In this document: positions 1 through 11,416 of the stretch, piece by piece
Layout: the number at the start of each line of letters is the position of its first letter
How positions within the stretch are numbered: position 1 is the first letter of the stretch
From: a bacterium
Lineage (GTDB): Bacteria; JAHJDO01
Reading direction: 5' to 3'
DNA: 11,416 nt
Assembly (NCBI GenBank): GCA_030611945.1
Contig: JAUWOV010000058.1
Span: 1-11,416 of the forward strand
The notes under the pieces: generated by a model
Database searches by the model: none
Told to the model about the DNA's origin: nothing
The model's input: the letters and a program-made list of their open reading frames with translations, nothing else
Position numbers and translations under genes: made by a program

Positions 1-1
1 T

Positions 2-1354
2 CTCCTTCAGCCAGAGGTAACAATTGGCTACAGTTATGATGCAAATGGAAACAAAGTAACTATGACTGGTCCAACTGGAACAACAGATTACAGCTATGAT
101 GTAGTTAACCGGTTAATATCTCTTACCAATCCAGATGCTCAAAGTACTGCCTTTGACTATGATGAGTTAAGCCGAAGAACATCTATGACTTTAGCAAACG
201 GGATAGCTACCAGCTACAGTTATGATTTCGCAAGTCAGTTAATCGGTATTCAGTCCTCAGCAGTCAGTTATCAATATACTTATGATAAAGTTGGTAACAG
301 AACCGCCATGACCGAACTTACAGGTCCAAATAACTATACCTATGACGTGCTTAATAGACTTATATCTTCAACTCATCCACAACCAGTTAATCCAGCAGAA
401 ACATTTACTTATGATACCGTGGATAATAGATTAATTTCACACGTCTCATCGTCCTATGTCTATGATGAATTAAACAGACTATTAGAAGACGAGCAATATA
501 CCTACGCATATGATAATAATGGCAATACGACTTCTAAGACAGACAAAACTACATTAGAGACTACTACTTACACATACAATGCCGAGAATCAGCTTGCAAG
601 GATAGATTTTGCAGGTGGTACTTATGTGGCTTATGCCTATGACGGATTAGGAAGACGCATACAAAAGGATGTCAATGGAGTAATTACAAGATATATTTAT
701 GATGCTGAAGACATATTGCTTGAATATGATGGCGCTAACACACTCACAGCAAGATATACTCATGGGGCAGGAGTAGATGAGCCTATTAGTATGGATAGAG
801 GAGGGCAATGCTACTTCTATCATGTTGACGGATTAGGAAGCGTAACTATTCTCACCGACTCTGCTGGGAATGTAGTCCAAGCTTATATTTACGATTCTTT
901 TGGTAACATCGTAGAACAAACTGGCTCGTTGACAAATCCGTATACATATACAGGTAGAGAGTTTGATAAGGATAGTGGTTTGTATTATTACAGGGCTAGA
1001 TATTATGACGCGAAAGTGGGGAGGTTTACAACGGTTGATCCTCTCCTCAGCATGATTTCTTCAGCAGGCGGATGCGGTTGTAACGGGGCAATAATCGAAC
1101 TTACTACGACGATGCGTATTGACCTTTATAATCCGTCTGAATTACATTCTTATGTATATTGCAGGAATAATCCTGTAAGTTTTATTGATCCAATGGGGCT
1201 TGTCGCAAAGGAAGACTGCATGAGTATATGCGATAGAAAATATAGTCAGGCTAAGTCAAGGTGTTTCAGGCATATTCTCTGTCCTTCAAAATGGGCAGCT
1301 TGCATGGAAAAGGCACGAGGAAGTTGGTACATTTGCTATATAAACTGTATCTAA
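2..1354 (+). CDS. Rhs/YD-repeat protein A, C-terminal part (5' end outside window), with cysteine-rich tip
   Basis: The reading frame is open from the window edge, so the first ATG at 62 is internal; 450 residues are visible. About nine tyrosine-aspartate (YD) repeats of the form YxYDxxNRL or YxYDxxGN run to roughly 840. The Rhs core follows: HVDGLGSV, YDSFGNI, YTYTGREFDKDSGLYYYRARYYDAKVGRF and then NNPVSFIDPMGL, with DPMGL at 1187-1201. In this family the repeats build a hollow beta shell, and the DPxGL region is where the variable C-terminal tip is cut off. The tip here is only 50 residues (1202-1351) with seven cysteines, and I recognise no enzymatic toxin domain in it. A cysteine/glycine-containing insert sits between DPLLSM and YVYCRNNPV. 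The stop overlaps the next start (TAATG). By family knowledge this is a secreted polymorphic toxin or adhesin-like protein. The Rhs assignment is firm; the tip's activity is unknown. Confidence 0.93.
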   Translation, partial: LLQPEVTIGYSYDANGNKVTMTGPTGTTDYSYDVVNRLISLTNPDAQSTAFDYDELSRRTSMTLANGIATSYSYDFASQLIGIQSSAVSYQYTYDKVGNRTAMTELTGPNNYTYDVLNRLISSTHPQPVNPAETFTYDTVDNRLISHVSSSYVYDELNRLLEDEQYTYAYDNNGNTTSKTDKTTLETTTYTYNAENQLARIDFAGGTYVAYAYDGLGRRIQKDVNGVITRYIYDAEDILLEYDGANTLTARYTHGAGVDEPISMDRGGQCYFYHVDGLGSVTILTDSAGNVVQAYIYDSFGNIVEQTGSLTNPYTYTGREFDKDSGLYYYRARYYDAKVGRFTTVDPLLSMISSAGGCGCNGAIIELTTTMRIDLYNPSELHSYVYCRNNPVSFIDPMGLVAKEDCMSICDRKYSQAKSRCFRHILCPSKWAACMEKARGSWYICYINCI

Positions 1355-1851
1355 TGTATTGGATGAAAAGTAGAAATATGAAAAAAATAATTTGGGGAAT
1401 TTTTGCGGTACTCTTATGTTCTATAGTTACCTATGGTTTAATGCTGATTACTCTTTCAGTATTCCTCGGGCCTGCTAGCGGAGTAGCCTCTATTATGAGA
1501 CGTATTGGATGCTCAGAAGTCCTAATTTTTCATGGGCGTATTTTTACAATTGAACTTGGTTGGGTTTTATCCAGCTTCATCGGAGGACTTCTGGTAGGTT
1601 TGTGGTGTAAGTATCATGGGTGGTTTCATGGTTTAGTGGTAGTACTTTGTTCATACATAATTCATGGACTGGCAATAATGCAGACAGAAGTTGTTCAAGA
1701 AGCTTTGAAAGGAATGTTCGTGGAAAAAGGGCTTTATACAGGGCGTATCTTTGTATCAATAATTATTTTTTTATTGTGTCTCCTTTGTGGTGGCATTGGT
1801 GGTGAGTTAGGAGTTCGCATTAGAACAAAGTTACTAAAAAGGGCAAACTAA
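1354..1851 (+). CDS. Small four-helix membrane protein; candidate immunity/partner of Rhs A tip
   Basis: The protein has 165 residues from the ATG at 1354, which overlaps the Rhs A stop as TAATG. In-frame ATGs at 1363 and 1378 are alternatives; the last gives a tidier MKKIIWG start, and no strong ribosome-binding site decides between them. Four hydrophobic segments are visible: IIWGIFAVLLCSIVTYGLMLI, ELGWVLSSFIGGLLVGLW, GLVVVLCSYIIHGLAIM and FVSIIIFLLCLLCGGIGG. The last runs into a glycine-rich GGIGGELG turn and a basic tail (RIRTKLLKRAN). It belongs to no family I can name. Its place directly behind a toxin tip, with overlapping start, is where Rhs immunity genes sit, so an immunity role is a positional inference only. 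An unrelated small integral membrane protein is equally compatible with the sequence. Confidence 0.7.
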   Translation: MYWMKSRNMKKIIWGIFAVLLCSIVTYGLMLITLSVFLGPASGVASIMRRIGCSEVLIFHGRIFTIELGWVLSSFIGGLLVGLWCKYHGWFHGLVVVLCSYIIHGLAIMQTEVVQEALKGMFVEKGLYTGRIFVSIIIFLLCLLCGGIGGELGVRIRTKLLKRAN

Positions 1852-1884
1852 ATGATACAAGGCAACCTAGCATTGAAACTTGAA
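1836..1884 (+). repeat. Module-junction repeat, copy 1 (AAAAAGGG ... TAA|ATG ATA CAA GG ... leader MIQGNLALKLE)
   Basis: This junction joins the end of the first membrane-protein gene to the start of Rhs B. It recurs at 3142-3209 after the second membrane-protein gene. Both copies have AAAAAGGG followed by the previous gene's TAA, then ATGATACAAGG, and then an 11-residue leader differing at one position (MIQGNLALKLE here, MIQGNLVLKLE there). Within the leader codons most differences are synonymous (ggc/ggt, cta/tta, ttg/cta, ctt/cta). The copies are therefore old, and the peptide rather than the DNA appears to be conserved. Confidence 0.6.
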
Positions 1885-2754
1885 GAGTTTGAGGATAGTT
1901 ATTGCGGTCTTCATTTGCTAGATGACAGAGAGCAAAGTTTCCCTGACAATATCATTCAGTTTCCATTAAAAAATAACACCTACAGCGCGTATGAGCACGA
2001 TTATCAGAATCTGATAAAGAAGATTATATTCCCTGACGCTTCAGTCAACGCATTCAATTATTGCAGATGCGGACCTGTCCGGAGGATGAAGCAGGATTCT
2101 ACAGGTACAACAAAATATCTCTATGATTTTGATGAAACATACCTGCTCTATGACTGCGATGAAAGCTGGAATGTAAAGGCTCAGTATACACTCGGTCTTG
2201 GAATAGACGAAATAATCAGCAAGAAATATCTTGATGGAGTGACATGGAAGAAGATATATTATCATTATGATGGATTGGGAAGTGTAGTTGCCCTTACAGA
2301 TGAAAACGGAGACTTAATCGGCAGATATGTTTACGACTCATTCGGAAATATCGTATCAGAGCCAGTGGGAGTGGATAACAGATATACCTATACAGGAAGA
2401 GAGTATGATAAGGATTCAGGATTGTACTATTACAGGGCGAGGTATTATGATGCGAAGGTGGGTAGGTTTACCACTGTTGATCCTCTTCTCAGCATGATTT
2501 GTTCAGGATATGGAGGGGGAGGGTGTGGCGTGATAACTCCTACTGCTTCTTTTGAACATCCTTATGTATATTGTTTAAATAATCCGGTTAATTATAAAGA
2601 TCCAACCGGGGAATTTGTGGATCCCGTAACTGCTGCTATTATACTACTAATAGTTATTGCCATTGCATATGCTAATTATCTTGCTGTCTGTTCGGATCCC
2701 TGTTCTACTCCTGAAGACATACAAAGAGCCCATGACGCAATACCAACAAAATGA
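1852..2754 (+). CDS. Rhs B: short (orphan-type) Rhs core with a membrane-helix tip
   Basis: The 300-residue protein starts directly after the preceding stop (TAA then ATG). Residues 1 to about 48 resemble nothing I know and begin with the repeated leader MIQGNLALKLE. From about residue 50 it aligns with the end of Rhs A: YLYDFDETYLLYD, YHYDGLGSVVALTDENG, YVYDSFGNIV and YTYTGREYDKDSGLYYYRARYYDAKVGRF, ending at NNPVNYKDPTGE (DPTGE 250-254). The tip is residues 255-300: a hydrophobic helix around 258-279, then a CSDPC motif and a polar end. It lacks the signal peptide, beta-propeller and most YD repeats of a full Rhs protein, which is the layout of a displaced Rhs core-tip cassette. It has an intact frame of normal codon structure, so it is not an obvious pseudogene. 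It may be expressed alone or serve as a donor for tip exchange; both are inferences. Confidence 0.85.
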   Translation: MIQGNLALKLEEFEDSYCGLHLLDDREQSFPDNIIQFPLKNNTYSAYEHDYQNLIKKIIFPDASVNAFNYCRCGPVRRMKQDSTGTTKYLYDFDETYLLYDCDESWNVKAQYTLGLGIDEIISKKYLDGVTWKKIYYHYDGLGSVVALTDENGDLIGRYVYDSFGNIVSEPVGVDNRYTYTGREYDKDSGLYYYRARYYDAKVGRFTTVDPLLSMICSGYGGGGCGVITPTASFEHPYVYCLNNPVNYKDPTGEFVDPVTAAIILLIVIAIAYANYLAVCSDPCSTPEDIQRAHDAIPTK

Positions 2755-3176
2755 AACCAAATATGAAAATTGACAAGTCAATGAGGATGCCAAGAAGATA
2801 TGCTATTGTTAATATAGTTGTAGCTCTTCTGATGTTTTTGATGCTCACCGGCTTATGTGTTATTGGTATGAAGATGGCATGTAGTTGGAAGAGCGCATCA
2901 AAGACACAGGAGAAAATGAGTAAGTTTGTGCCAACTACTTCAGCCGAACAGGGCATGAAAAAGCTTCTTATTCATTATTGCTGGGTGACTAAAGTTCAGA
3001 GAGCTGAGTTTTTTCTCCTAGTGACAGTAGTCTTTGCTTTCGGGTTTTTTGGAGTATATTCATTCACAGTAATTAGGAAACTCACTATGAAATTAGCAAG
3101 GCACAGCAACACAAGGAAAGAAGAAAAAGAGCAAAAGGAGCAAAAAGGGACAGCAACCTTTTTAAAGGAAGAATAA
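2751..3176 (+). CDS. Small two-helix membrane protein; candidate immunity/partner of Rhs B tip
   Basis: The protein has 141 residues; its ATG overlaps the Rhs B stop as ATGA, a classic translational-coupling junction. In-frame ATGs at 2763, 2781 and 2787 are possible later starts, none with a clear ribosome-binding site. A basic N-terminus (MRMPRR) precedes a first membrane helix (about residues 17-42). A polar middle of about 45 residues with two cysteines follows, then a second helix (about 87-108). The C-terminus is highly charged (KEEKEQKEQK) and ends in FLKEE. I recognise no family. Position after an Rhs tip makes an immunity role plausible, but it does not resemble the protein after Rhs A in helix number. 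The 3' end overlaps a short inverted repeat (3142-3163), so the charged tail may partly derive from a repeat element. Confidence 0.65.
   Translation: MKPNMKIDKSMRMPRRYAIVNIVVALLMFLMLTGLCVIGMKMACSWKSASKTQEKMSKFVPTTSAEQGMKKLLIHYCWVTKVQRAEFFLLVTVVFAFGFFGVYSFTVIRKLTMKLARHSNTRKEEKEQKEQKGTATFLKEE
3142..3163. repeat. Short inverted repeat AAAAAGG-8 nt-CCTTTTT
   Basis: Perfect 7-bp arms (3142-3148 and 3157-3163) flank an 8-nt loop GACAGCAA, inside the 3' end of the two-helix membrane-protein gene. The arms are mostly A/T, so the hairpin is weak as RNA. It has the oligo-T tract of a terminator but only two G-C pairs, so I do not call it one. It resembles short REP-like palindromes of the AAAAAGG...CCTTTTT type that I recall from environmental bacterial genomes. 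Confidence 0.4.
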
Positions 3177-3245
3177 ATGATACAAGGTAACTTAGTGCTA
3201 AAACTAGAAAAAAGCGAGATGGAAAAATTAGGGGTAGCATCGTAA
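3177..3245 (+). CDS. 22-codon stub ORF with Rhs B leader (module junction, copy 2)
   Basis: The ORF starts directly after the preceding TAA and stops in a TAATG overlap with rpmC. It encodes 22 residues beginning MIQGNLVLKLEKSEMEKLG; the first 11 match the Rhs B leader at 10 positions. After the leader the two sequences part, and no YD-repeat or core follows. It could be the remnant of a third Rhs cassette whose body was lost, the abandoned 5' junction of the whole insertion, or a translated spacer that keeps ribosomes moving into rpmC. It contains the AGGGG (3230-3234) that probably serves as the rpmC ribosome-binding site. The open frame is certain; expression and function are not. Confidence 0.4.
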   Translation: MIQGNLVLKLEKSEMEKLGVAS

Positions 3246-3472
3246 TGAAGGTTAGTAAGTTTAGAGATATGACAAATATAGAATTAGATCAAGAGCTTGT
3301 TAATCTGAAACAGGAAATATTTAATTTGAGTGTTCGTTCATCTACGGGGCAATTGGAGGATCCAAAAAGGATCGGACGATTAAGAAAAGATATAGCGAGA
3401 ATTAATACTGTCCTGCGAGAGGGACAGATAGAGGAAAGGAAAAGTGAAAAAGATTCAAAAGGGAAAGACTAA
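3245..3472 (+). CDS. rpmC: 50S ribosomal protein L29 (uL29)
   Basis: The 75-residue protein is a small two-helix component of the large subunit near the polypeptide exit tunnel. The L29 pattern is clear: [39 protein letters not shown], then the second helix [19 protein letters not shown]. It is slightly longer than average because of a charged tail. The start overlaps the stop of the upstream 22-codon ORF, and AGGGG at 3230-3234 gives a good spacing of 10 nt. Normally rplP lies directly upstream; here it is replaced by Rhs material, so the gene has lost its usual neighbour and possibly its native promoter. The 3' end overlaps rpsQ by 29 nt. Confidence 0.96.
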
Positions 3473-3704
3473 AGCAGGTGTTGTTGTTAGTGATAAGATG
3501 GATAAGACGGTTGTCGTTTTAGTAGAAAGACTGGTTTTACATTCAATCTATAAAAAAAGGGTGAAGAGATTCAGCAGGTTTAAGGCGCACGATAAAGATA
3601 ATTCTGCGCATACAGGCGATAGAGTGGAAATTAAGGAAACCAGACCGTTGAGTAAAGATAAAAGATGGTATATTTCAAAGATTATGGAAAAGGCGGGCAC
3701 ATAA
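3444..3704 (+). CDS. rpsQ: 30S ribosomal protein S17 (uS17)
   Basis: The 86-residue OB-fold protein binds 16S rRNA early in small-subunit assembly. Signature sequences are [38 protein letters not shown] and [18 protein letters not shown]. The start codon is GTG at 3444, inside the end of rpmC. It is needed because the basic lead-in ([11 protein letters not shown]) matches the family and the next in-frame start is well inside the fold. GAGG at 3431-3434 lies 9 nt upstream. The 29-nt overlap with rpmC suggests coupled translation. Confidence 0.96.
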
Positions 3705-3705
3705 A

Positions 3706-4074
3706 TTGATACAAGCGCAAACCATCCTCAACGTAGCTGATAATTCAGGAGCAAAGAGGTTAATGTGCTTTAAGGTATTAGGAGGCACGCGCAGAAGATA
3801 TGCTCGCATAGGAGATATTGTAGTAGCGTCTGTAAAAGAGTCAACCCCTGATGGCGCTGTAAAAAAAGGGGATGTAGTAAAAGTTGTTATTGTGCGAACA
3901 AGAAAAGAGATCAGAAGGGAAGACGGTTCATATATAAAATTTGATAAGAATGCCGGTGTTATAATTGACGCTCAGAAGAATCCTGTTGGAACAAGGATTT
4001 TTGGTCCGGTTGCCAGAGAATTGCGGGATAAGGAGTTTACTAAAATTATTTCATTGGCTCCTGAGGTTATTTAA
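3706..4074 (+). CDS. rplN: 50S ribosomal protein L14 (uL14)
   Basis: The 122-residue protein has exactly the usual family length. It lies at the subunit interface and contacts 16S rRNA in bridge B8. Recognisable parts are [26 protein letters not shown] at the start, then [44 protein letters not shown] and [27 protein letters not shown] at the end. The start is TTG at 3706, one base after the rpsQ stop; the universal MIQ beginning of L14 fixes this choice although the codon is rare. Confidence 0.97.
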
Positions 4075-4075
4075 A

Positions 4076-4426
4076 ATGAAAGTGAAGAATGAAATGGCTA
4101 AAGAATATAATTATATTAAAAAAGGTGATCAGGTTGTTGTCATATCAGGAAAGGAGAATGGCAAGGCAGGGCGTGTTTTACGTGTGTTTCCCAAAAAAAA
4201 GAGAGCTATTGTAGAGAGAGTGAATTTTGTTAAGAAACACACAAAACCTTCACAGAAGAATCAGAAGGGCGGAATAATGGAGAAGGAAGCGCCTTTACAT
4301 GTATCTAATTTATTATTATATTGCGCGCGATGTGAAAAAGGATCCAGAATTGGATTTAAAATATTGGGAAATAAAACCAAAGTGAGATATTGCAAACGCT
4401 GCAACGAGTTAATTGATAAGAGTTAA
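4076..4426 (+). CDS. rplX: 50S ribosomal protein L24 (uL24) with C-terminal double CxxC
   Basis: The 116-residue protein initiates assembly of the 50S subunit. The N-terminal KOW motif is plain: IKKGDQVVVISGKENGKAGRVLRVFPKKKRAIVERVN. It is followed by KHTKPSQKNQKGGIMEKEAPLHVSN and a C-terminal zinc-ribbon-like part with CARC ... CKRC. The frame stays open upstream into rplN, but ATG 4076, two nt after the rplN stop and 9 nt after a GAGG (4063-4066), is the natural start. ATG 4094 (MAKEYNYIKKGD) is the alternative and would give a more typical length. Confidence 0.95.
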   Translation: MKVKNEMAKEYNYIKKGDQVVVISGKENGKAGRVLRVFPKKKRAIVERVNFVKKHTKPSQKNQKGGIMEKEAPLHVSNLLLYCARCEKGSRIGFKILGNKTKVRYCKRCNELIDKS

Positions 4427-4429
4427 AAA

Positions 4430-4978
4430 ATGACACGATTAGAAAAGAAATATAAAGAAGACACAATACCGCAAATGATGAAGAAGTTTGGGTATAAAAA
4501 TAAACTGCAGGTCCCGAAATTGGAAAAGATTGTGCTTAACACATGTCTAAAAGAGGCTATAGAAAATAAGAAGGTTTTAGATAGCGCATGTTTAGAACTG
4601 GGAGCAATAACAGGACAAAAGCCAATTATTACAAAGGCAAAGAAGTCTGTAGCAGGGTTTAAGCTCAGAGAAAATATGCCAATAGGAGCTAAAGTAACTC
4701 TACGGCGAAACAGAATGCATGAATTCCTTGACCGCTTGTTAAATATAACTCTGCCGCGTATAAGGGATTTTAGAGGAGTTTCTTCGAAATCTTTTGACAT
4801 TAGCGGAAATTACACACTGGGTATTAAAGAACAGACTATATTCCCTGAAATAGATGTTGATAAAGTAGAAAAGGTTCATGGAATGGATATTACAATTGTA
4901 ACCAGCGCAAAAACTCCTGACGAAGGAAGAGAGCTATTGGGATTATTAGGGATGCCTTTTAGTAGAGAGGATACATAA
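4430..4978 (+). CDS. rplE: 50S ribosomal protein L5 (uL5)
   Basis: The 182-residue protein is close to the standard length of about 180. It binds 5S rRNA and contacts S13 across the central protuberance. Family blocks in order are [110 protein letters not shown] and [27 protein letters not shown]. The start follows the rplX stop by three nt. The gene is followed by the only long gap in the ribosomal block, which holds a palindromic repeat. Confidence 0.97.
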
Positions 4979-4989
4979 GAATGACAAAA

Positions 4990-5125
4990 AAACTAAATAC
5001 GAAGCACGAAATACTAAACAATATCAAATAACCAAAATACAAATGTTCAAAACAATGTTTAGAATTTTGAGAATTAGAATTTTAAATTTGTTTCGAGTTT
5101 AGATATTAGGATTTAGGATTTAGGA
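4990..5125. repeat. AT-rich imperfect palindromic intergenic repeat between rplE and rpsZ
   Basis: The 154-bp gap contains no gene. It is built as an imperfect inverted repeat with arms of about 60 nt around the core AAACAATGTTT (near 5050-5060). The left arm carries CTAAATACGAAGCACGAAAT and CTAAAC; the right arm carries GTTTCGAGTTTAG and ends in the short direct repeat ATTTAGGATTTAGG. The last copy of TTAGG supplies the Shine-Dalgarno AGGAGA (5122-5127) of rpsZ. From memory, similar palindromes (AAACAATGTTT cores with AATTCAAAATTC-like arms) are scattered between genes in Omnitrophota and other candidate-phylum genomes; I cannot check this here. Confidence 0.6.
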
Positions 5126-5132
5126 GAAAGAG

Positions 5133-5318
5133 ATGGCAAGAAAAGCGCTTATAGTAAAAGCTAAAAGAGAGCCGAAACATAAGGTGCAGAGATATAATAG
5201 GTGCAGTTTGTGCGGAAGACCGCGTGGATATATAAGAAAATTTGGATTATGTAGAATATGTTTTAGAAAATTAGCTCTGAGCGGAAAACTGCCTGGAGTT
5301 ATAAAAGCTAGTTGGTAA
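5133..5318 (+). CDS. rpsZ: 30S ribosomal protein S14, zinc-binding short type (uS14)
   Basis: The 61-residue protein is the short S14 form with four zinc ligands, visible as C24-x2-C27 and C40-x2-C43 (CSLC and CRIC). It acts in the 30S head near the decoding region. The rest matches the family: [30 protein letters not shown] and a C-terminal GVIKASW. The ribosome-binding site AGGAGA (5122-5127) is contributed by the end of the upstream palindromic repeat. It sits in the normal spc position between rplE and rpsH. Confidence 0.97.
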
Positions 5319-5333
5319 TTTAGGAGAATAAAG

Positions 5334-5729
5334 ATGCCTGTAACAGATCCAATATCAGATATGCTTACATCCATTAGAAATGCTTATATGGTTCATAAAA
5401 ACCGTTTGTCTGTATCTGCCTCTACATTGAAGGTGGATATAGTAGGTATCCTGAAAAAAGAGGGGTTCATTCAGGATTATAAAGTTGAGGCTAATAATGG
5501 TCATAAAATCATAGAAATAGATCTGCGCTATTATAAAAAAGAACCTATGGTAAGAGGTTTAGAAAGAGTAAGCAAACCAGGTCTGCGCATATATGTCCCT
5601 GCTTCTAAAATCCCCAGAGTAAAAAGAGGCGCAGGAATAGCTGTCTTATCTACTTCAGAAGGCATAATGACTGATAAAGAATGCAGGAAAAGAAAAATCG
5701 GAGGCGAGGTTATTTGTTATGCGTGGTAG
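5334..5729 (+). CDS. rpsH: 30S ribosomal protein S8 (uS8)
   Basis: The 131-residue protein has the usual length. It binds the central domain of 16S rRNA and, in model bacteria, also spc-operon mRNA as a translational repressor. Family blocks are TDPISDMLTSIRNAYMVHKNRLSV, ILKKEGFIQDYKVE, KPGLRIYVPASKIPRV and the C-terminal VLSTSEGIMTDKECRKRKIGGEVICYAW. The start is preceded by AGGAGA at 5322-5327 with 6-nt spacing. The stop codon TAG is part of the strong ribosome-binding site of rplF. Whether S8 feedback control exists here cannot be judged from the sequence. Confidence 0.97.
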   Translation: MPVTDPISDMLTSIRNAYMVHKNRLSVSASTLKVDIVGILKKEGFIQDYKVEANNGHKIIEIDLRYYKKEPMVRGLERVSKPGLRIYVPASKIPRVKRGAGIAVLSTSEGIMTDKECRKRKIGGEVICYAW

Positions 5730-5733
5730 GAGG
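5728..5733 (+). promoter_or_regulatory. Shine-Dalgarno AGGAGG that decides the rplF start
   Basis: The perfect AGGAGG overlaps the rpsH stop codon. Spacing to the ATG at 5736 is only 2 nt, but 5 nt to the GTG at 5739. This, together with the family's usual MSRIG beginning, favours GTG 5739 as the rplF start. Confidence 0.75.
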
Positions 5734-5738
5734 AAATG

Positions 5739-6290
5739 GTGTCTAGAATAGGGCTCATGCCAATAGATATTCCGGATGGTGTTAAGGCGCAGATAGATGG
5801 GAAGCTGGTTAAGGTTAGCGGACCTAAAGGCGCTTTGGAACATAAATTAGATGCAGAGGTATCTGCAGCTGTAGAGGATAATAAGATTATTGTAAAGAGA
5901 GGATCGGATACGAAATCAGCAAGAGCAAAACATGGATTAAATAGAGCTTTAATTGCCAATATGGTAATAGGAGTAACTACAGGGTTTGAAAAAATTCTGG
6001 AAATCAAGGGAGTAGGATATAGAGCTCAAATGCAGGGGCAGAAGCTGCAGCTGCAATTGGGTTTTTCACATCCAATAGTATATGAGATTCCGTCAAATAT
6101 AGAGATTGAAGTAAGGAAAAATAATCAGATTGTAGTGAAAGGAATTGATAAACAGTTGGTAGGCGAGGTAGCTGTCGCAATCAGGAATATGAGAAAACCA
6201 GAGCCATATAAAGGAAAGGGAATTCGCTATTTGGGCGAGCACATTAAACACAAAGTTGGTAAAACAGCCACAGCTGGCGTGCAGGCATAA
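5739..6290 (+). CDS. rplF: 50S ribosomal protein L6 (uL6)
   Basis: The protein has 183 residues from GTG 5739, or 184 from the overlapping ATG at 5736. L6 binds helix 97 of 23S rRNA near the factor-binding site. From GTG the protein begins MSRIGLMPIDIPDGV, the typical family start. Further blocks are KLVKVSGPKGALEHKL, RAKHGLNRALIANMVIGVTTGFEKILEIKGVGYRAQ, LQLGFSHPIVYEIP, IVVKGIDKQLVGEVAVAIRNMRKPEPYKGKGIRYLGEHIKHKVGKT. Both copies of the duplicated L6 fold are present. It follows rpsH with the ribosome-binding site overlapping that gene's stop. Confidence 0.96.
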   Translation: MSRIGLMPIDIPDGVKAQIDGKLVKVSGPKGALEHKLDAEVSAAVEDNKIIVKRGSDTKSARAKHGLNRALIANMVIGVTTGFEKILEIKGVGYRAQMQGQKLQLQLGFSHPIVYEIPSNIEIEVRKNNQIVVKGIDKQLVGEVAVAIRNMRKPEPYKGKGIRYLGEHIKHKVGKTATAGVQA

Positions 6291-6302
6291 AGGATACTGC
6301 TA

Positions 6303-6668
6303 ATGAAATTAAAAGGTAGAGCTAGAAGACATAAGAGAGTAAGAAAAAAAGTTATTGGCACAGCTCAAAGACCAAGGTTATGTGTCTTTAGAAGTTTAGG
6401 ACATATATATGTTCAATTAATTGATGATGGGAACAGCAGGACAATACTTTCAGCGTCAACTCGTTCAAAAGGCCCCGAAGGCGTTCGGGGTGGGAAAATA
6501 AAGTACGGAGGAAACGTAGCAGCAGCAAAAGCCGTGGGAAAGATGCTGGGGGAGAAAGCGTTAAATAATAAGATTACAGATGTTGTATTTGATAAGGGAG
6601 GATATTTATATCATGGCCGCATAAAGGCTTTAGCAGACGCGGCCAGAGAAGCCGGGCTTAAGTTTTAG
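6303..6668 (+). CDS. rplR: 50S ribosomal protein L18 (uL18), with a small loop insertion
   Basis: The 121-residue protein binds 5S rRNA together with L5. Typical blocks are [35 protein letters not shown], the SAST motif, [18 protein letters not shown] and [28 protein letters not shown]. Between SAST and GN the loop reads [16 protein letters not shown]; compared with remembered E. coli and Bacillus L18 it is about four or more residues longer. The added codons coincide with a perfect GC-rich inverted repeat at 6473-6490. Start ATG 6303 has AAGGA (6290-6294) 8 nt upstream. Confidence 0.96.
6473..6490. repeat. GC-rich perfect inverted repeat inside rplR
   Basis: CCCCGAA-GGCG-TTCGGGG forms a 7-bp perfect stem with a 4-nt loop, and a flanking G-T pair can extend it. 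It is strikingly GC-rich against an AT-rich gene and encodes the extra glycine-rich loop of L18 (GPEGVRG). It could be an in-frame REP-like palindrome insertion or a local RNA hairpin. There is no T-tract, so it is not a terminator. Confidence 0.6.
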
Positions 6669-6671
6669 CGT

Positions 6672-6678
6672 GAGGAGG
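6672..6678 (+). promoter_or_regulatory. Shine-Dalgarno GAGGAGG supporting the TTG start of rpsE
   Basis: A seven-base match to the anti-Shine-Dalgarno sequence lies 7 nt before TTG 6686. There is no ATG or GTG at that spacing in the frame, so this site decides the rare TTG start. Confidence 0.8.
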
Positions 6679-6685
6679 AACTAGT

Positions 6686-7177
6686 TTGATAGAAAACAGA
6701 AAAGAAAAGGGCGCAGATGGGCAGGAGCTAATAGAGCGAGTTGTGCATGTAAATAGAGTTGGTAAGGTTGTAAAAGGCGGAAGAAAGTTTGGTTTTAGTA
6801 GTCTGGCTGTAGTAGGGGATGGAAATGGAAAAGTAGGATACGGCATAGGTAAGGCAAACGCAGTACCTGAGTCAATAAAAAAAGCTGTCCAATCAGCAAA
6901 GAGGAATATGATAGATGTTTTAATTGTAGATACAACAATCCCGTTTGAAATAGTAGGTCATTATGATGCAGCAAGAATTATGTTGAAACCTGCTTCAAAG
7001 GGAACTGGTGTAATTGCAGGAAGCGCGGTTAGGGCTGTATTGGAAGCTGTTGGCATTCAAAATGCTTTGACAAAATGTTTGGGATCCAATAATTCTATAA
7101 ATGTTGTTAGAGCAACAATAGAAGGTTTGAGAAATATATCAGAGATTTATGAGTTATCAAAGAAAAGGCGCAGATAA
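6686..7177 (+). CDS. rpsE: 30S ribosomal protein S5 (uS5)
   Basis: The 163-residue protein has the usual length. It sits at the mRNA entry site and acts in decoding fidelity. The N-terminal double-stranded-RNA-binding-like domain reads [54 protein letters not shown]. The C-terminal domain reads [48 protein letters not shown]. The TTG start is supported by GAGGAGG. In many bacteria rpmD (L30) follows; here rplO begins at once after the stop, so L30 is absent from its normal place. Confidence 0.97.
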
Positions 7178-7618
7178 ATGATATTAGGTAATTTGAAAGT
7201 TCCTAAAGGCGCTAGCAAGAGGAAGAAAATAGTTGGACGCGGCGATGGTTCCGGTCATGGGAAAACTGCCTGCAGGGGGAGCAAGGGGCAGAGATCAAGA
7301 TCCGGCGGCGGAGTTCGCCGTGGTTTTGAAGGCGGTCAAATGCCTCTCTATCGCAGAGTGCCAAAAAGAGGATTTACAAGCCGCTCAAGGGAAAAAATAG
7401 CAATTATAAATATAGAGAAATTAAATTGTTTTAAGGACGGCTCGGTTGTGAATCTTGAGCGTCTTACAGAAAAAGGGCTGTTAAAGTCTCAGAATGCTTT
7501 AGTCAAAATTTTAGGTGTGGGAGAGTTAAAGAAAAAGTTAAATGTAAAAGCGCATAGCTTTAGTAAGGGTGCTATCAAGAAGATTGTAGGCGCTGGAGGA
7601 ACTGCAGAGGTTACATAA
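7178..7618 (+). CDS. rplO: 50S ribosomal protein L15 (uL15)
   Basis: The 146-residue protein is a late-assembly, 23S rRNA-binding component. The glycine- and arginine-rich N-terminus is diagnostic: KVPKGASKRKKIVGRGDGSGHGKTACRGSKGQRSRSGGGVRRGFEGGQMPLYRRVPKRGF. The globular C-terminal part reads INIEKLNCFKDGSVVNLERLTEKGLL ... VKILGVGELKKKLNVKAHSFSKGAIKKI. The start abuts the rpsE stop (TAA|ATG), and the stop overlaps the secY start (TAATG). Local GC is higher in the glycine-rich part, as expected from its composition. Confidence 0.97.
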   Translation: MILGNLKVPKGASKRKKIVGRGDGSGHGKTACRGSKGQRSRSGGGVRRGFEGGQMPLYRRVPKRGFTSRSREKIAIINIEKLNCFKDGSVVNLERLTEKGLLKSQNALVKILGVGELKKKLNVKAHSFSKGAIKKIVGAGGTAEVT

Positions 7619-8931
7619 TGCTATCAGGATTTCAAGATATATTTAGAATACCAGAATTAAAGAAGCGGGTTTTGTTTACCTTGTCTATTATAGCTGTTTT
7701 TAGAATAGGCGCCTTTGTCCCGACTCCAGGTATAGATACCAGCGCGTTGGTTGAGTATTTTACCAGAATGCAGGGAACTCTCTTTGGAATGGCAGACCTG
7801 TTTTCAGGAGGAGCATTACGAAAACTATCCATATTTGCCCTTGGCATAATGCCGTATATTAGCGCTTCAATCATAATGCAGTTATTGACTCCAGTTATCC
7901 CTTATTTAGAAAAATTGTCAAAAGAAGGAGATTTTGGACGAAAGAAGATAACTCAGTATACCAGATATGGAACAATAGTGGTAAGCCTGATTCAGTCTAC
8001 GGGTATTAGCTTGTGGCTGTCTAATCCGCATAGTTTTGGTGGATTAAAAATAGTTCCTAATCCAGGACTTTACTTTCACTTCATAGTTGTAATGACTCTT
8101 ACTACAGGAACAGTGTTCATTATGTGGTTGGGAGAACAGATAACTGAACGCGGGATAGGAAATGGAATATCACTTATAATTTTTGCGGGAATTGTTGCCG
8201 GAATGCCTGGAGATCTAGGCAGAACCTATAGATTGCTTGATACAGGGCAGATGAGGTTTTTCTCACTAATATTTCTCGCAGCAATTATGATTGCAGTTAT
8301 TGCAGCAGTGGTCTTAATTACACAAGGATACAGGAAGATACCTGTTCAATATGCGAAGCGTATTGTTGGAAGAAAAATGTATGGAGGGCAAAATACGCAC
8401 ATCCCGTTACGTGTAAACCAGGCAGGAGTGATTCCGATTATATTTGCGGTTTCTATTATGATGTTTCCACAGACAATAATGACCTTTTTACCAGCTAAAA
8501 GTTCAATAATTGGAACCATTGTTTCCTATTTCTCAATGAACCAATGGCCGGGTATGATAATGTATGTTGTTTTAATTATATTATTCACATACTTTTACAC
8601 AGCTATTACTTTTAATCCTATAGAAATGGCTGATAATATGAAGAAATATGGCGGATTTGTTCCAGGTATAAGACCAGGCAAACCAACTGCTGAATATTTT
8701 GACAGGATAATGACAAAAATTGCTTTTGCAGGAGGTATGTTTTTAGGGGCTATAGCAATCTTACCAACCTTAATGACAAAGTGGATGAATATTCCATTCT
8801 ATTTTGGAGGAACTTCACTTTTAATAGTTGTCGGAGTTGCTCTGGATACAATGAAGCAGGTAGAATCGCACCTGTTAATGAGACATTATGAAGGGTTTAT
8901 GAAAAAAGGGAAATTAAGGGCGCGGTATTAA
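7618..8931 (+). CDS. secY: Preprotein translocase subunit SecY
   Basis: The 437-residue protein has normal length and forms the channel of the Sec translocon in the inner membrane with SecE and SecG. Ten membrane helices are expected and the hydrophobic segments fit. Family blocks include FRIGAFVPTPGID near the start, GGALRKLSIFALGIMPYISASIIMQLL (about residues 64-90), ERGIGNGISLIIFAGIVAGMP (about 177-197), the cytoplasmic loop YRKIPVQYAKRIVG (about 238-251), HIPLRVNQAGVIPIIFA and FNPIEMADNMKKYGGFVPGIRPGKPT. The start overlaps the rplO stop and has GAGG 7 nt upstream. No adk, map, infA or rpmJ follows; a Sec-exported Rhs gene does. Confidence 0.97.
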   Translation: MLSGFQDIFRIPELKKRVLFTLSIIAVFRIGAFVPTPGIDTSALVEYFTRMQGTLFGMADLFSGGALRKLSIFALGIMPYISASIIMQLLTPVIPYLEKLSKEGDFGRKKITQYTRYGTIVVSLIQSTGISLWLSNPHSFGGLKIVPNPGLYFHFIVVMTLTTGTVFIMWLGEQITERGIGNGISLIIFAGIVAGMPGDLGRTYRLLDTGQMRFFSLIFLAAIMIAVIAAVVLITQGYRKIPVQYAKRIVGRKMYGGQNTHIPLRVNQAGVIPIIFAVSIMMFPQTIMTFLPAKSSIIGTIVSYFSMNQWPGMIMYVVLIILFTYFYTAITFNPIEMADNMKKYGGFVPGIRPGKPTAEYFDRIMTKIAFAGGMFLGAIAILPTLMTKWMNIPFYFGGTSLLIVVGVALDTMKQVESHLLMRHYEGFMKKGKLRARY

Positions 8932-8967
8932 AAATTTAAGTAATGAAGAAACTTAGAAATTGACTAT

Positions 8968-8973
8968 AAGGAG
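8968..8973 (+). promoter_or_regulatory. Shine-Dalgarno AAGGAG for the Rhs D gene
   Basis: AAGGAG lies 8 nt before ATG 8982 in the 50-bp gap after secY and fixes the start of the large exported protein. The gap shows no terminator hairpin and no convincing -35/-10 pair, so transcription may continue from secY. Confidence 0.7.
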
Positions 8974-8981
8974 ACAGTGAA

Positions 8982-11416
8982 ATGACTATCAAAAAAATAA
9001 TCACATTAGCCAGCCTATCTATTCTATGTCTTTTAACCCTCTCCCCCAATCTTGAAGCCAAAGGTAGAAACATTGATATTACCATCGCCCCTGATAAAGC
9101 GGAAGATTATGTTATAGAAGAAAAAGCCACATTTGACATAGAGATGACGCGTCGTAATAGACCTGCCAACATAAAGCTGAAGCAGATAGAAGCAACATTC
9201 CCAAATGAAGATATTTCAGTAAGTTTAACCAAAGTCAGCAAAGGCAAATTTAAATATATCAGCGAGGGATTTGAGGAGACTGGAGAGAAGACACTAGCCA
9301 TGACGGTAAGGACTTATGGAGCGGTAAAAAGCGTGGAGAGTCTTGAAAGAGCAAAGGAGAGACTTGAGAAGAGGATAGAGAAGCTGGAGGAACGAAAGGA
9401 GAACACAAACAATGAGAGGCTCAAGCGAATACTAGACAGGTTAATAGCCAAATGTCAGAGAAGCATTCAGAAGATAGAAGCTAAAATAGAGAAGATTAGA
9501 GAGAAGGGAATTATAGGCGAAGCTAGTTTGACGATCAATGTAATACCCATTGCTCCGCCGCCAGAAGTTCCTGAATCAGGACATATTTACGGCAATGTGT
9601 ATGACAGTGTGACAGAACTTCCCATTTATGAAGTTGTAATAATAGTAGAAGGAATAGAAGGAGGAGTTTCAACTGATGAAGAAGGAAGATTCAGATTCCC
9701 TATATCAGAGTTTGAGGGAGATTTCAGAGACGCAAAACTCCTCATTCAAAAAGAAGGATATATTTCTGTAACGAGAAATATAAGCGTAGTATCGGAAAGA
9801 GATGTTTCGGTAGGAGATATCTATCTAAAAGAGGTTGATCCTGTAGTTACAGAGATAACGCCAGCAGGAGGAGAGGCTACTGATTCTACTGAAACAGTAA
9901 AGTTAATTTTTCCTCCTGATGCAGTATCAGAGCCGGTTGATATTGTAATTACGCCGTATGAAGAAGAAAAGGAATTACCAGAAAAACTTCCGCTTAATAC
10001 TGGTTTTTTAACAGGGATAAGCGTTCAGGACGGAGGAGCCACATTCACACAGCCTGTAACCGTGGAATTGCCAAATGACAAAGGATTTCCGCCGGGCACA
10101 TTAATTCCCATTGGCAGATACTATCAAGATATAGAAGAGTGGGTGCATGAAACAATGGCGGTTGTAAACGAAGACGGAACCAAGATAGTATATCAGACGA
10201 CTCAATTCAGCAACCATTCTGCAGGTGTATCAACAAAGACTGAGGATGGTGGCGCAGGAGTGCATGGAGATAAAGAAGTAGACAAAGCGCCAGACGATCC
10301 ATTCCAACCTGAGCCAGGGGTTTACGCAGGTCTCAGAATGGGAAATCTTACTATTGAACATAAGCTTCCTTCAATTAAATGTCTTGGCAAAATAGAGGCG
10401 TTAAATTTTTACTATCAAACGGAGACAGTAAATCCCAGACCAAGGGTAAGCTTAGAACTTAGATGTCCGTCAGGTGGAGTAGGAGGAAGACCAATCCCGG
10501 AGACACTTGGATTTGATATATCTATAGGAGACGAGAATAGACATGTTGTGTTTGAATCTCAGCCAGGATGGTATAAACAGAGTTACATGTTTGACGCAAG
10601 AGATGGAGACGGCAATCTTCTTCCTACAGGAAGTTATCCGTATTCAGCAAATACAAGCAATGACTATGATGCTGTTTACTGCTTGACAGACGAATTTGGA
10701 GGTCCTCCGCTCGTATCAACAGGCATACCAACAGAAAAACCAGTTTCAATTCCAATGGTTGCGCCAGGAAGAGTAGAAATTCAGAATGAGACCGACAGCC
10801 CGTTTGGCGCAGGTTGGAGTATAGAAGGTTTGCAAAGAATGCATTTTGATCCTGATGGCACAATACTCCTGACAAATGGCGATGGAAGCATGGATATATT
10901 TGCAGCAGGGGAAGAAGTAGCAAAGGGATTTGGAATTCCTGCGTACATAGCAATAAGTCCTGAGGAAGACATCATTGTAACAGACCCATTCATTTCTCAG
11001 ATGACAGAAGTAGGAAAATCGGAAGTAATAACAGTCGTAAGAATAAGTCCTGATGGCACTAAAACAAAGGTAGTTGATTTAGAGAGACCAACAGGGATAG
11101 TTTATGACGCATTTGGCAATTTATATATAGCAAGCGCCAGATTTCCAAAGTATGAAAACGGCATCCCAATCCCGGGAACTTTTCCAACGATACTCAGAAT
11201 AGACCCTTTAGGAGGAACTACAGAATTGCCCTGTCCAGCCGCAAGACCTGGAGCATTAGCGATAGACGCACTGAATAATCTATATGTAGCTGACCTTATA
11301 ATGGGCAGAATATACAAGATAACGCCTTTAGGCCAGGTAAGTATTTTTGCAAAAGGATTTCAAATGCCGGGGGAAATGGCGTTTGATACATCAGGAAATC
11401 TCTACGTAGCCAATGG
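8982..11416 (+). CDS. Giant Sec-exported Rhs/teneurin-like protein D, N-terminal part (3' end outside window)
   Basis: The frame is open for 811 residues to the window edge. In order: a signal peptide (TIKKIITLASLSILCLLTLSPNLEA, cleavage after about residue 26) and an Ig-like beta domain (27-115). A charged coiled-coil hairpin follows (about 117-176), then a carboxypeptidase-regulatory-like beta domain (about 200-285; GNVYDSVTELPIYEVVI ... STDEEGRFRF). Next is a ZU5-like domain (about 286-430; FPPDAVSEPVDIVITP), then the plug/shell entry typical of YD proteins (MGNLTIEHKLPSIKCLGKIEALNFYY, and SPFGAGWSIEGLQRM at 606-620). Last comes a beta-propeller of NHL type (from about 649; RPTGIVYDAFGNLYIA, GALAIDALNNLYVA, MPGEMAFDTSGNLYVAN). 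YD repeats should follow beyond the window. There is no PAAR or VgrG-like start, so export is by Sec, not by type VI secretion. The identification is firm; the toxin tip is not visible. Confidence 0.92.
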   Translation, partial: MTIKKIITLASLSILCLLTLSPNLEAKGRNIDITIAPDKAEDYVIEEKATFDIEMTRRNRPANIKLKQIEATFPNEDISVSLTKVSKGKFKYISEGFEETGEKTLAMTVRTYGAVKSVESLERAKERLEKRIEKLEERKENTNNERLKRILDRLIAKCQRSIQKIEAKIEKIREKGIIGEASLTINVIPIAPPPEVPESGHIYGNVYDSVTELPIYEVVIIVEGIEGGVSTDEEGRFRFPISEFEGDFRDAKLLIQKEGYISVTRNISVVSERDVSVGDIYLKEVDPVVTEITPAGGEATDSTETVKLIFPPDAVSEPVDIVITPYEEEKELPEKLPLNTGFLTGISVQDGGATFTQPVTVELPNDKGFPPGTLIPIGRYYQDIEEWVHETMAVVNEDGTKIVYQTTQFSNHSAGVSTKTEDGGAGVHGDKEVDKAPDDPFQPEPGVYAGLRMGNLTIEHKLPSIKCLGKIEALNFYYQTETVNPRPRVSLELRCPSGGVGGRPIPETLGFDISIGDENRHVVFESQPGWYKQSYMFDARDGDGNLLPTGSYPYSANTSNDYDAVYCLTDEFGGPPLVSTGIPTEKPVSIPMVAPGRVEIQNETDSPFGAGWSIEGLQRMHFDPDGTILLTNGDGSMDIFAAGEEVAKGFGIPAYIAISPEEDIIVTDPFISQMTEVGKSEVITVVRISPDGTKTKVVDLERPTGIVYDAFGNLYIASARFPKYENGIPIPGTFPTILRIDPLGGTTELPCPAARPGALAIDALNNLYVADLIMGRIYKITPLGQVSIFAKGFQMPGEMAFDTSGNLYVAN

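What the first reader, a model, noticed from the sequence alone, without database searches (positions are those of the whole stretch)
1..11416. Ribosomal-protein block sandwiched between the tail of one Rhs system and the head of another
rpmC is directly preceded by Rhs cassettes (TAATG overlap) and secY is followed after 50 bp by an Rhs N-terminus. The usual neighbours (rplP/rpsC upstream; adk, map, infA or rpsM downstream) are missing on both sides. If real, the universal S10/spc cluster has been broken by, or embedded in, a repeated Rhs family. Alternatives are homologous recombination between Rhs copies, a tandem or circular unit in which left tail and right head belong to the same gene, or an assembly join inside a repeat.
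Basis: partly seen in the sequence, partly recalled or inferred. Interest (0 to 1): 0.75.

Follow-up and report, generated by a model that had tools for sequence, protein, structure and literature searches.

The report
Toxin genes wedged into ribosome operons
In an uncultured bacterium, two large Rhs-type toxin gene modules sit inside the normally unbroken run of ribosomal-protein genes, and a sister species has comparable insertions at other places in its ribosomal and translation genes; this looks real and is unusual, though the toxin family itself is well known.

Summary
The window is one whole contig of a 119-contig metagenome bin. It carries rpmC to secY in the usual order, flanked by an Rhs tail and an Rhs head. 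The 'missing' neighbours exist. Contig C103 runs rpsL...rplP and then into an Rhs head. Contig C76 overlaps the window's right end by 116 identical bases and leads through the rest of Rhs 2 to adk-infA-rpmJ-rpsM-rpsK-rpsD-rpoA-rplQ. So S10-spc-alpha order is intact apart from two inserted Rhs modules, rplP|rpmC and secY|adk. Three congeneric species have empty sites at both. A 31-bp exact duplication flanks the first insert. Further inserts occur in the same genome (ffh|rpsP, pilB/gspE|pilC/gspF) and in sister species G001 (rplC|rplD, before tuf); G004 keeps a scar at rplC|rplD. No interruption of either junction was found in up to 68 comparison loci. Misassembly or an excised circle is unlikely, but a tandem duplication of the block is not excluded. 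Best reading: co-directional polymorphic-toxin modules lodged between essential genes, expressed by read-through and kept by that setting. Read-through, toxicity and the insertion mechanism are inferred. I found no earlier report.

The parts
2..1354 (+). Tail of Rhs gene 1 (YD repeats, Rhs-associated core ending DPMGL, short variable C-terminus of about 50 aa); its 5' part lies off the contig. Its expected head is on C103 after rplP
   Evidence: PF05593 E 6e-26; TIGR01643, TIGR03696 above cut-off
1354..1851 (+). Candidate immunity gene 1, multi-spanning membrane protein (start 1354 or 1378)
   Evidence: position after the variable C-terminus; 5 hydrophobic segments; no Pfam family above cut-off
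1852..2754 (+). Orphan Rhs cassette: start motif MIQGNLALKLEEF, partial core, DPTGE, variable C-terminus
   Evidence: TIGR03696 73 bits; start motif found at other insert ends
2751..3176 (+). Candidate immunity gene 2, membrane protein with 2 hydrophobic segments
3177..3220 (+). Truncated cassette-start motif at the right end of the insert
   Evidence: pattern search; related copies at insert ends before adk (C76), pilC/gspF (C115), rplD (G001:C123) and upstream of tuf (G001:C82)
3221..3251 (+). 31-bp exact duplication of the rplP 3' end plus rpmC start; the other copy is C103:25346-25376, left of the insert
3245..8931 (+). spc block: rpmC 3245-3472, rpsQ 3444-3704, rplN 3706-4074, rplX 4094-4426, rplE 4430-4978, rpsZ/rpsN 5133-5318, rpsH 5334-5729, rplF 5736-6290, rplR 6303-6668, rpsE 6686-7177, rplO 7178-7618, secY 7618-8931 (no rpmD)
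   Evidence: 84-91% nucleotide identity to G002, G003, G004
4999..5122 (.). Dispersed AT-rich repeat of about 123 bp inserted between rplE and rpsZ; about 20 copies in the genome
   Evidence: absent at this place in G002-G004
8932..8981 (+). 50-bp gap between secY and Rhs 2, with Shine-Dalgarno-like TAAGGAG
8982..11416 (+). Head of Rhs gene 2: Sec-type signal sequence, carboxypeptidase-regulatory-like domain, NHL repeats; continues on C76
11301..11416 (+). 116-bp end-to-end exact overlap with the end of contig C76 (42055-42170, minus strand)

Best explanation
Two Rhs/YD-repeat polymorphic-toxin modules (exported Rhs gene, short variable C-terminal toxin, membrane immunity gene, sometimes an orphan cassette, then a truncated cassette-start motif) have inserted, in the direction of transcription, at the gene junctions rplP|rpmC and secY|adk of an otherwise normal S10-spc-alpha cluster. 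SHOWN by sequence: both inserts, empty sites in congeners, co-orientation, a 31-bp flanking duplication at rplP|rpmC that keeps both overlapping genes whole, and comparable insertions at other ribosomal/translation-gene junctions in the same genome (ffh|rpsP) and in a sister species (rplC|rplD, before tuf). INFERRED: the modules are translated from mRNA read through from the upstream ribosomal promoter, are tolerated because they lie between genes, are co-directional and have no terminator at the junctions, are hard to lose because two of them flank essential genes as direct repeats, and can spread between strains by homologous recombination in the conserved flanks. The insertion chemistry is probably illegitimate or template-switch repair rather than one transposase, because the flanking duplications differ in length (4, 31, about 45-60 bp) and no transposase or integrase was seen in the parts that could be read.
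For: C103 carries rpsL-rpsG-tuf-rpsJ-rplC-rplD-rplW-rplB-rpsS-rplV-rpsC-rplP and then an Rhs head. C76 carries the rest of Rhs 2, a CPBP/Rce1-like membrane protein, the motif, then adk-infA-rpmJ-rpsM-rpsK-rpsD-rpoA-rplQ. G002, G003 and G004 have uninterrupted rplP-rpmC and secY-adk. 31-bp exact repeat on both sides. Third insert: 7,012 bp between pilB/gspE-like and pilC/gspF-like genes on C115, clean empty site in G001 and G002 with a 4-bp AAAG repeat. Fourth: ffh|Rhs with a diverged copy of the rpsP start fused in frame to the Rhs leader, intact rpsP on C37. Sister species G001: inserts at rplC|rplD and before a tuf copy; G004 scar at rplC|rplD. No + strand terminator-like site at either Rhs/ribosomal junction in the window. 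In comparison loci rplP|rpmC is -13 to 45 nt (n=68) and secY|adk -15 to 121 nt (n=50). None of 25 Rhs-core loci outside this genus lay within 1.5 kb of the tested ribosomal genes.
Against: The middle of Rhs 1 (about 2.3 kb if it is one gene) is on no contig found in this bin, so the full content of that insert is unknown and could include a recombinase. The C24/C76 contig break at a shared 116-mer means the assembly graph probably branched there. No reads, coverage or transcripts are available. Only two species of one genus show full Rhs inserts in these operons, and one of them is 62% complete. Toxicity and immunity are inferred from architecture; no C-terminus was assigned to a known toxin family.
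Confidence: 0.8

Rival explanations
1. Assembly artefact: contigs were joined inside Rhs repeats, so Rhs and ribosomal genes are not neighbours in the cell.
For: The genome has several Rhs genes, the contigs break inside them, and contig depth is unknown.
Against: A random join would not place rplP before one Rhs head and rpmC after an Rhs tail, and secY before another head and adk after its tail. The ribosomal/Rhs junctions themselves lie in the contig interior, not at a contig end. An independent bin (G001) shows comparable insertions, and G004 shows a scar. A 31-bp duplication at the junction is hard to get from a misjoin.
Confidence: 0.06
2. A tandem duplication, or an excised circle, of [Rhs - rpmC...secY - Rhs]: the left tail and the right head belong to the same gene and the unit is amplified by recombination between the Rhs copies.
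For: The two Rhs copies are direct repeats flanking the block, so unequal crossover is expected to be possible; depth is unknown.
Against: The right head overlaps C76, whose Rhs tail leads to adk, and the left tail has its own expected head on C103 after rplP. Only one copy of the block was found in the bin. A circle carrying only essential genes and no replicon is implausible.
Confidence: 0.06
3. Site-specific mobile element: an integrase or transposon carrying Rhs cargo inserts at ribosomal gene ends, and the 31-bp repeat is its att or target duplication.
For: A 31-bp exact repeat that rebuilds the rplP 3' end resembles att sites of elements that target gene ends; the right ends share a motif.
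Against: No integrase or transposase was seen in any sequenced part. The flanking repeats differ in sequence and length between sites (AAAG; 31 bp; diverged rpsP start) and no shared terminal inverted repeat was noticed, though none was searched for systematically. The shared right-end motif reads as the start of an orphan Rhs cassette.
Confidence: 0.08

Closest known systems
Rhs / YD-repeat polymorphic toxin loci (e.g. E. coli Rhs; orphan CT/immunity cassettes, PMC3150448)
   Same: YD repeats, Rhs-associated core with DPxG boundary, short variable C-terminus, downstream candidate immunity gene, orphan cassettes in tandem.
   Different: Placed between ribosomal-protein genes in the same direction; Sec-type leader with carboxypeptidase-regulatory and NHL domains; candidate immunity proteins checked are all membrane proteins.
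[quoted passage not shown]
   Same: Genes, and in six cases transposable elements, inserted in this operon cluster.
   Different: The insertions analysed in detail there are small sets of metabolic genes (bfd-bfr, tusDCB, nrdHEF, ilv-leu), mostly between operons. Here large toxin modules lie inside S10 (rplP|rpmC, rplC|rplD) and at secY|adk, repeatedly in one genus.
T6SS effector/immunity module displacement (Vibrio cholerae, PMC5361080; title and abstract only read here)
   Same: Toxin/immunity modules exchanged at fixed loci, leaving arrays of immunity genes; by analogy conserved flanks could serve as homology arms.
   Different: There the loci belong to a secretion system; here the flanks are ribosomal genes. 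Exchange is only inferred here from the patchy rplC|rplD site.

Membership tests
Rhs polymorphic toxin | YD/RHS repeats | tested here: met
   PF05593, TIGR01643
Rhs polymorphic toxin | Rhs-associated core domain with DPxG boundary before a variable C-terminus | tested here: met
   TIGR03696 above cut-off; DPMGL, DPTGE, DPLGL, DPWGL read in translations
Rhs polymorphic toxin | Immunity gene directly downstream | tested here: inconclusive
   Small membrane-protein ORFs follow each tail checked; no test of neutralisation
Rhs polymorphic toxin | Toxic C-terminal domain | not testable with these tools
   No C-terminal domain matched a toxin family; an assay is needed
S10-spc-alpha ribosomal cluster | Canonical gene order across the three contigs | tested here: met
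   order interrupted only at rplP|rpmC and secY|adk, plus a 123-bp repeat at rplE|rpsZ
Transposon or integrative element | Transposase or integrase in the insert | tested here: inconclusive
   None seen in sequenced parts; the middle of the Rhs 1 insert is missing from the bin
Transposon or integrative element | Constant-length target duplication | tested here: not met
   4 bp, 31 bp and about 45-60 bp at three sites

The most novel reading that the evidence does not exclude
In this deep-branching genus ribosomal-protein and translation operons are a preferred landing and expression site for Rhs toxin modules: the modules borrow ribosomal promoters or start sites (at ffh|rpsP a copied rpsP start is fused in frame to the Rhs leader), so toxin output would follow growth rate, and conserved ribosomal genes act as homology arms that spread and retain them.
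Probability: 0.35. Interest if true: 0.8.

Novelty: new variant of a known kind. Interest (0 to 1): 0.62.

Why it matters
The S10-spc-alpha cluster is among the most conserved gene orders in bacteria (PMC8046335). Kilobase-scale toxin modules lodged inside it, at several sites and in more than one species, would show that this order tolerates large co-directional inserts, would suggest a way to couple weapon expression to growth, and would give toxin modules a setting from which they are hard to delete. It also bears on methods: ribosomal-protein contigs used as phylogenetic markers can break at such inserts.

Tried and rejected
Named relatives: no homologue of the Rhs head in genome contigs or viral contigs; SecY finds nothing closer than about 62% identity. 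A tree of eight proteins puts the genus near Omnitrophota/Elusimicrobia loci with uneven support (0.32 to 0.93), so no name is given. Gap contig between C103 and C24: no overlapping contig in the bin. Rfam: nothing at gathering thresholds. Promoter scan near chance (37 found, 33 expected) and not used as evidence. Literature: no paper found on Rhs genes inside ribosomal operons; the library is open-access only. G001's spc region is not in its bin, so the two window junctions could not be checked there.

Full report
What the window is. It is the complete contig C24 (11,416 bp) of a 119-contig, 1.66-Mb metagenome bin, about 91% complete with 3% contamination. Four other species of the genus are held (G001-G004). 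In the tool's listing the next genomes are related only at domain level. A rough tree of eight proteins places the genus near Omnitrophota and Elusimicrobia loci, with uneven support.

The observation. The TAATG before rpmC, however, is a copy of the rplP stop/rpmC start and not an overlap with an Rhs cassette.

The missing neighbours are in the genome. On C103 the str-S10 genes run rpsL, rpsG, tuf, rpsJ, rplC, rplD, rplW, rplB, rpsS, rplV, rpsC, rplP; about 45 nt after rplP an Rhs head begins and runs off the contig. The end of C76 matches the last 116 bp of the window exactly. Read away from that end, C76 carries the rest of an Rhs gene (1,202 aa open), a CPBP/Rce1-like membrane protein, the cassette-start motif, a 54-codon ORF, then adk, infA, rpmJ, rpsM, rpsK, rpsD, rpoA, rplQ. 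So the ribosomal order is normal, with one Rhs module between rplP and rpmC and another between secY and adk.

Empty sites. In G002, G003 and G004 rplP runs straight into rpmC, and secY is followed within tens of bases by adk. In comparison loci from named genomes and distant relatives, plus three congeners, rplP|rpmC spans -13 to 45 nt (68 loci) and secY|adk -15 to 121 nt (50 loci); none is interrupted. Contigs broken by an insert would not be counted there.

Junction detail. At rplP|rpmC 31 identical bases stand on both sides, covering the rplP 3' end and the first 7 nt of rpmC. Because the two genes overlap by TAATG, an insertion without such a copy would have damaged one of them. On C115 a 7,012-bp insert (Rhs of 2,032 codons stop to stop, two membrane ORFs, motif, HicB-like gene) lies between a pilB/gspE-like ATPase gene and a pilC/gspF-like gene; G001 and G002 have the uninterrupted site, with AAAG at both ends of the insert. 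On C81 an Rhs gene follows ffh; its ORF begins with a diverged copy of the first 14 codons of rpsP fused to a signal-sequence-like leader, while intact rpsP is on C37. G001, G002 and G003 have ffh-rpsP adjacent; G004 has a different insert there.

Other species. In G001 (62% complete) rplC is followed by a secreted Ig-domain protein and the start of another ORF on C5. On C123 an Rhs gene, membrane ORF, motif and MNT/HEPN pair precede rplD. On G001:C82 Rhs genes precede one of two tuf copies. G004 keeps, between rplC and rplD, a broken signal-peptide ORF and the same MNT/HEPN pair but no Rhs. G000, G002 and G003 have rplC-rplD adjacent (with 45 for G000 and G003). On a tree of rplD-rplV, G000 pairs with G001 and G002 with G004, so this site is patchy: either loss from a common ancestor or exchange between species.

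Is the location special? Counting Rhs loci with a known neighbour, roughly 5 of 8 in G000 and G001 lie at ribosomal or translation genes; with an assumed 3-5% of the genome in such operons the binomial chance is about 1e-6 to 2e-5, and leaving out the two window sites (3 of 6) about 5e-4 to 2e-3. These figures rest on small hand counts and an assumed fraction, and are a guide only. None of 25 Rhs-core loci from other genera lay within 1.5 kb of the ribosomal, translation and neighbouring genes tested; the stretches held there are short, so upstream neighbours of long Rhs genes were mostly out of reach.

How it probably works. The modules have Rhs architecture with a short variable C-terminus after DPxG and a following membrane protein; seven such candidate immunity proteins have 2-6 hydrophobic segments, which fits membrane-acting toxins. 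No terminator-like site lies at either Rhs/ribosomal junction in the window, and the modules are co-directional, so read-through from the ribosomal promoter is the simplest expression route. This is inference; no transcript data exist here. The two Rhs copies are direct repeats around twelve genes, most of them expected to be essential, so a deletion between them should be lethal while a duplication is possible. Variable flanking duplications argue against one dedicated transposase, but the unread middle of the first insert leaves that open.

Novelty. The toxin family is known and insertions into this operon cluster are known (PMC8046335), including transposable elements. I found no report of Rhs modules inside ribosomal operons in the open-access library. 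I file it as a new variant of a known kind.

Noticed in passing
window 4999-5122: AT-rich dispersed repeat of about 123 bp between rplE and rpsZ, with about 20 copies in this genome and copies in G001, G002 and G004; absent from this spot in G002-G004.
   Followed up: partly
window 7177-7178: rpmD is absent between rpsE and rplO.
   Followed up: no
L046 1-1459 (G000:C103 left end): A second tuf copy preceded by a copy of the rpsG 3' end (93% to the str-operon copy over the whole stretch); the second tuf in G002 and G004 shows similarity only from just after rpsG.
   Followed up: partly
L049 around 9010 and 9303: Short GC-rich palindromic dispersed repeats (such as GTAGGGGCGGGGCTTGCCTCCGCCC) lie in frame inside the C115 Rhs gene and recur in many contigs of all five species.
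   Followed up: no
L090 2678-3327; L055 about 1206-1864: An MNT/HEPN-type pair sits between rplC and rplD in G001 and G004; a HicB-like gene and a 54-codon ORF sit at two other insert right ends.
   Followed up: partly
L259 2738-5101 (G004:C96): A lipoprotein-like ORF and a TPR protein are inserted between ffh and rpsP in G004, the junction that holds Rhs in G000.
   Followed up: partly
L093 2642-4225 (G003:C34): A RAYT-like transposase ORF and a decayed cassette-start remnant lie between a topA-like gene and an rny-like gene.
   Followed up: no
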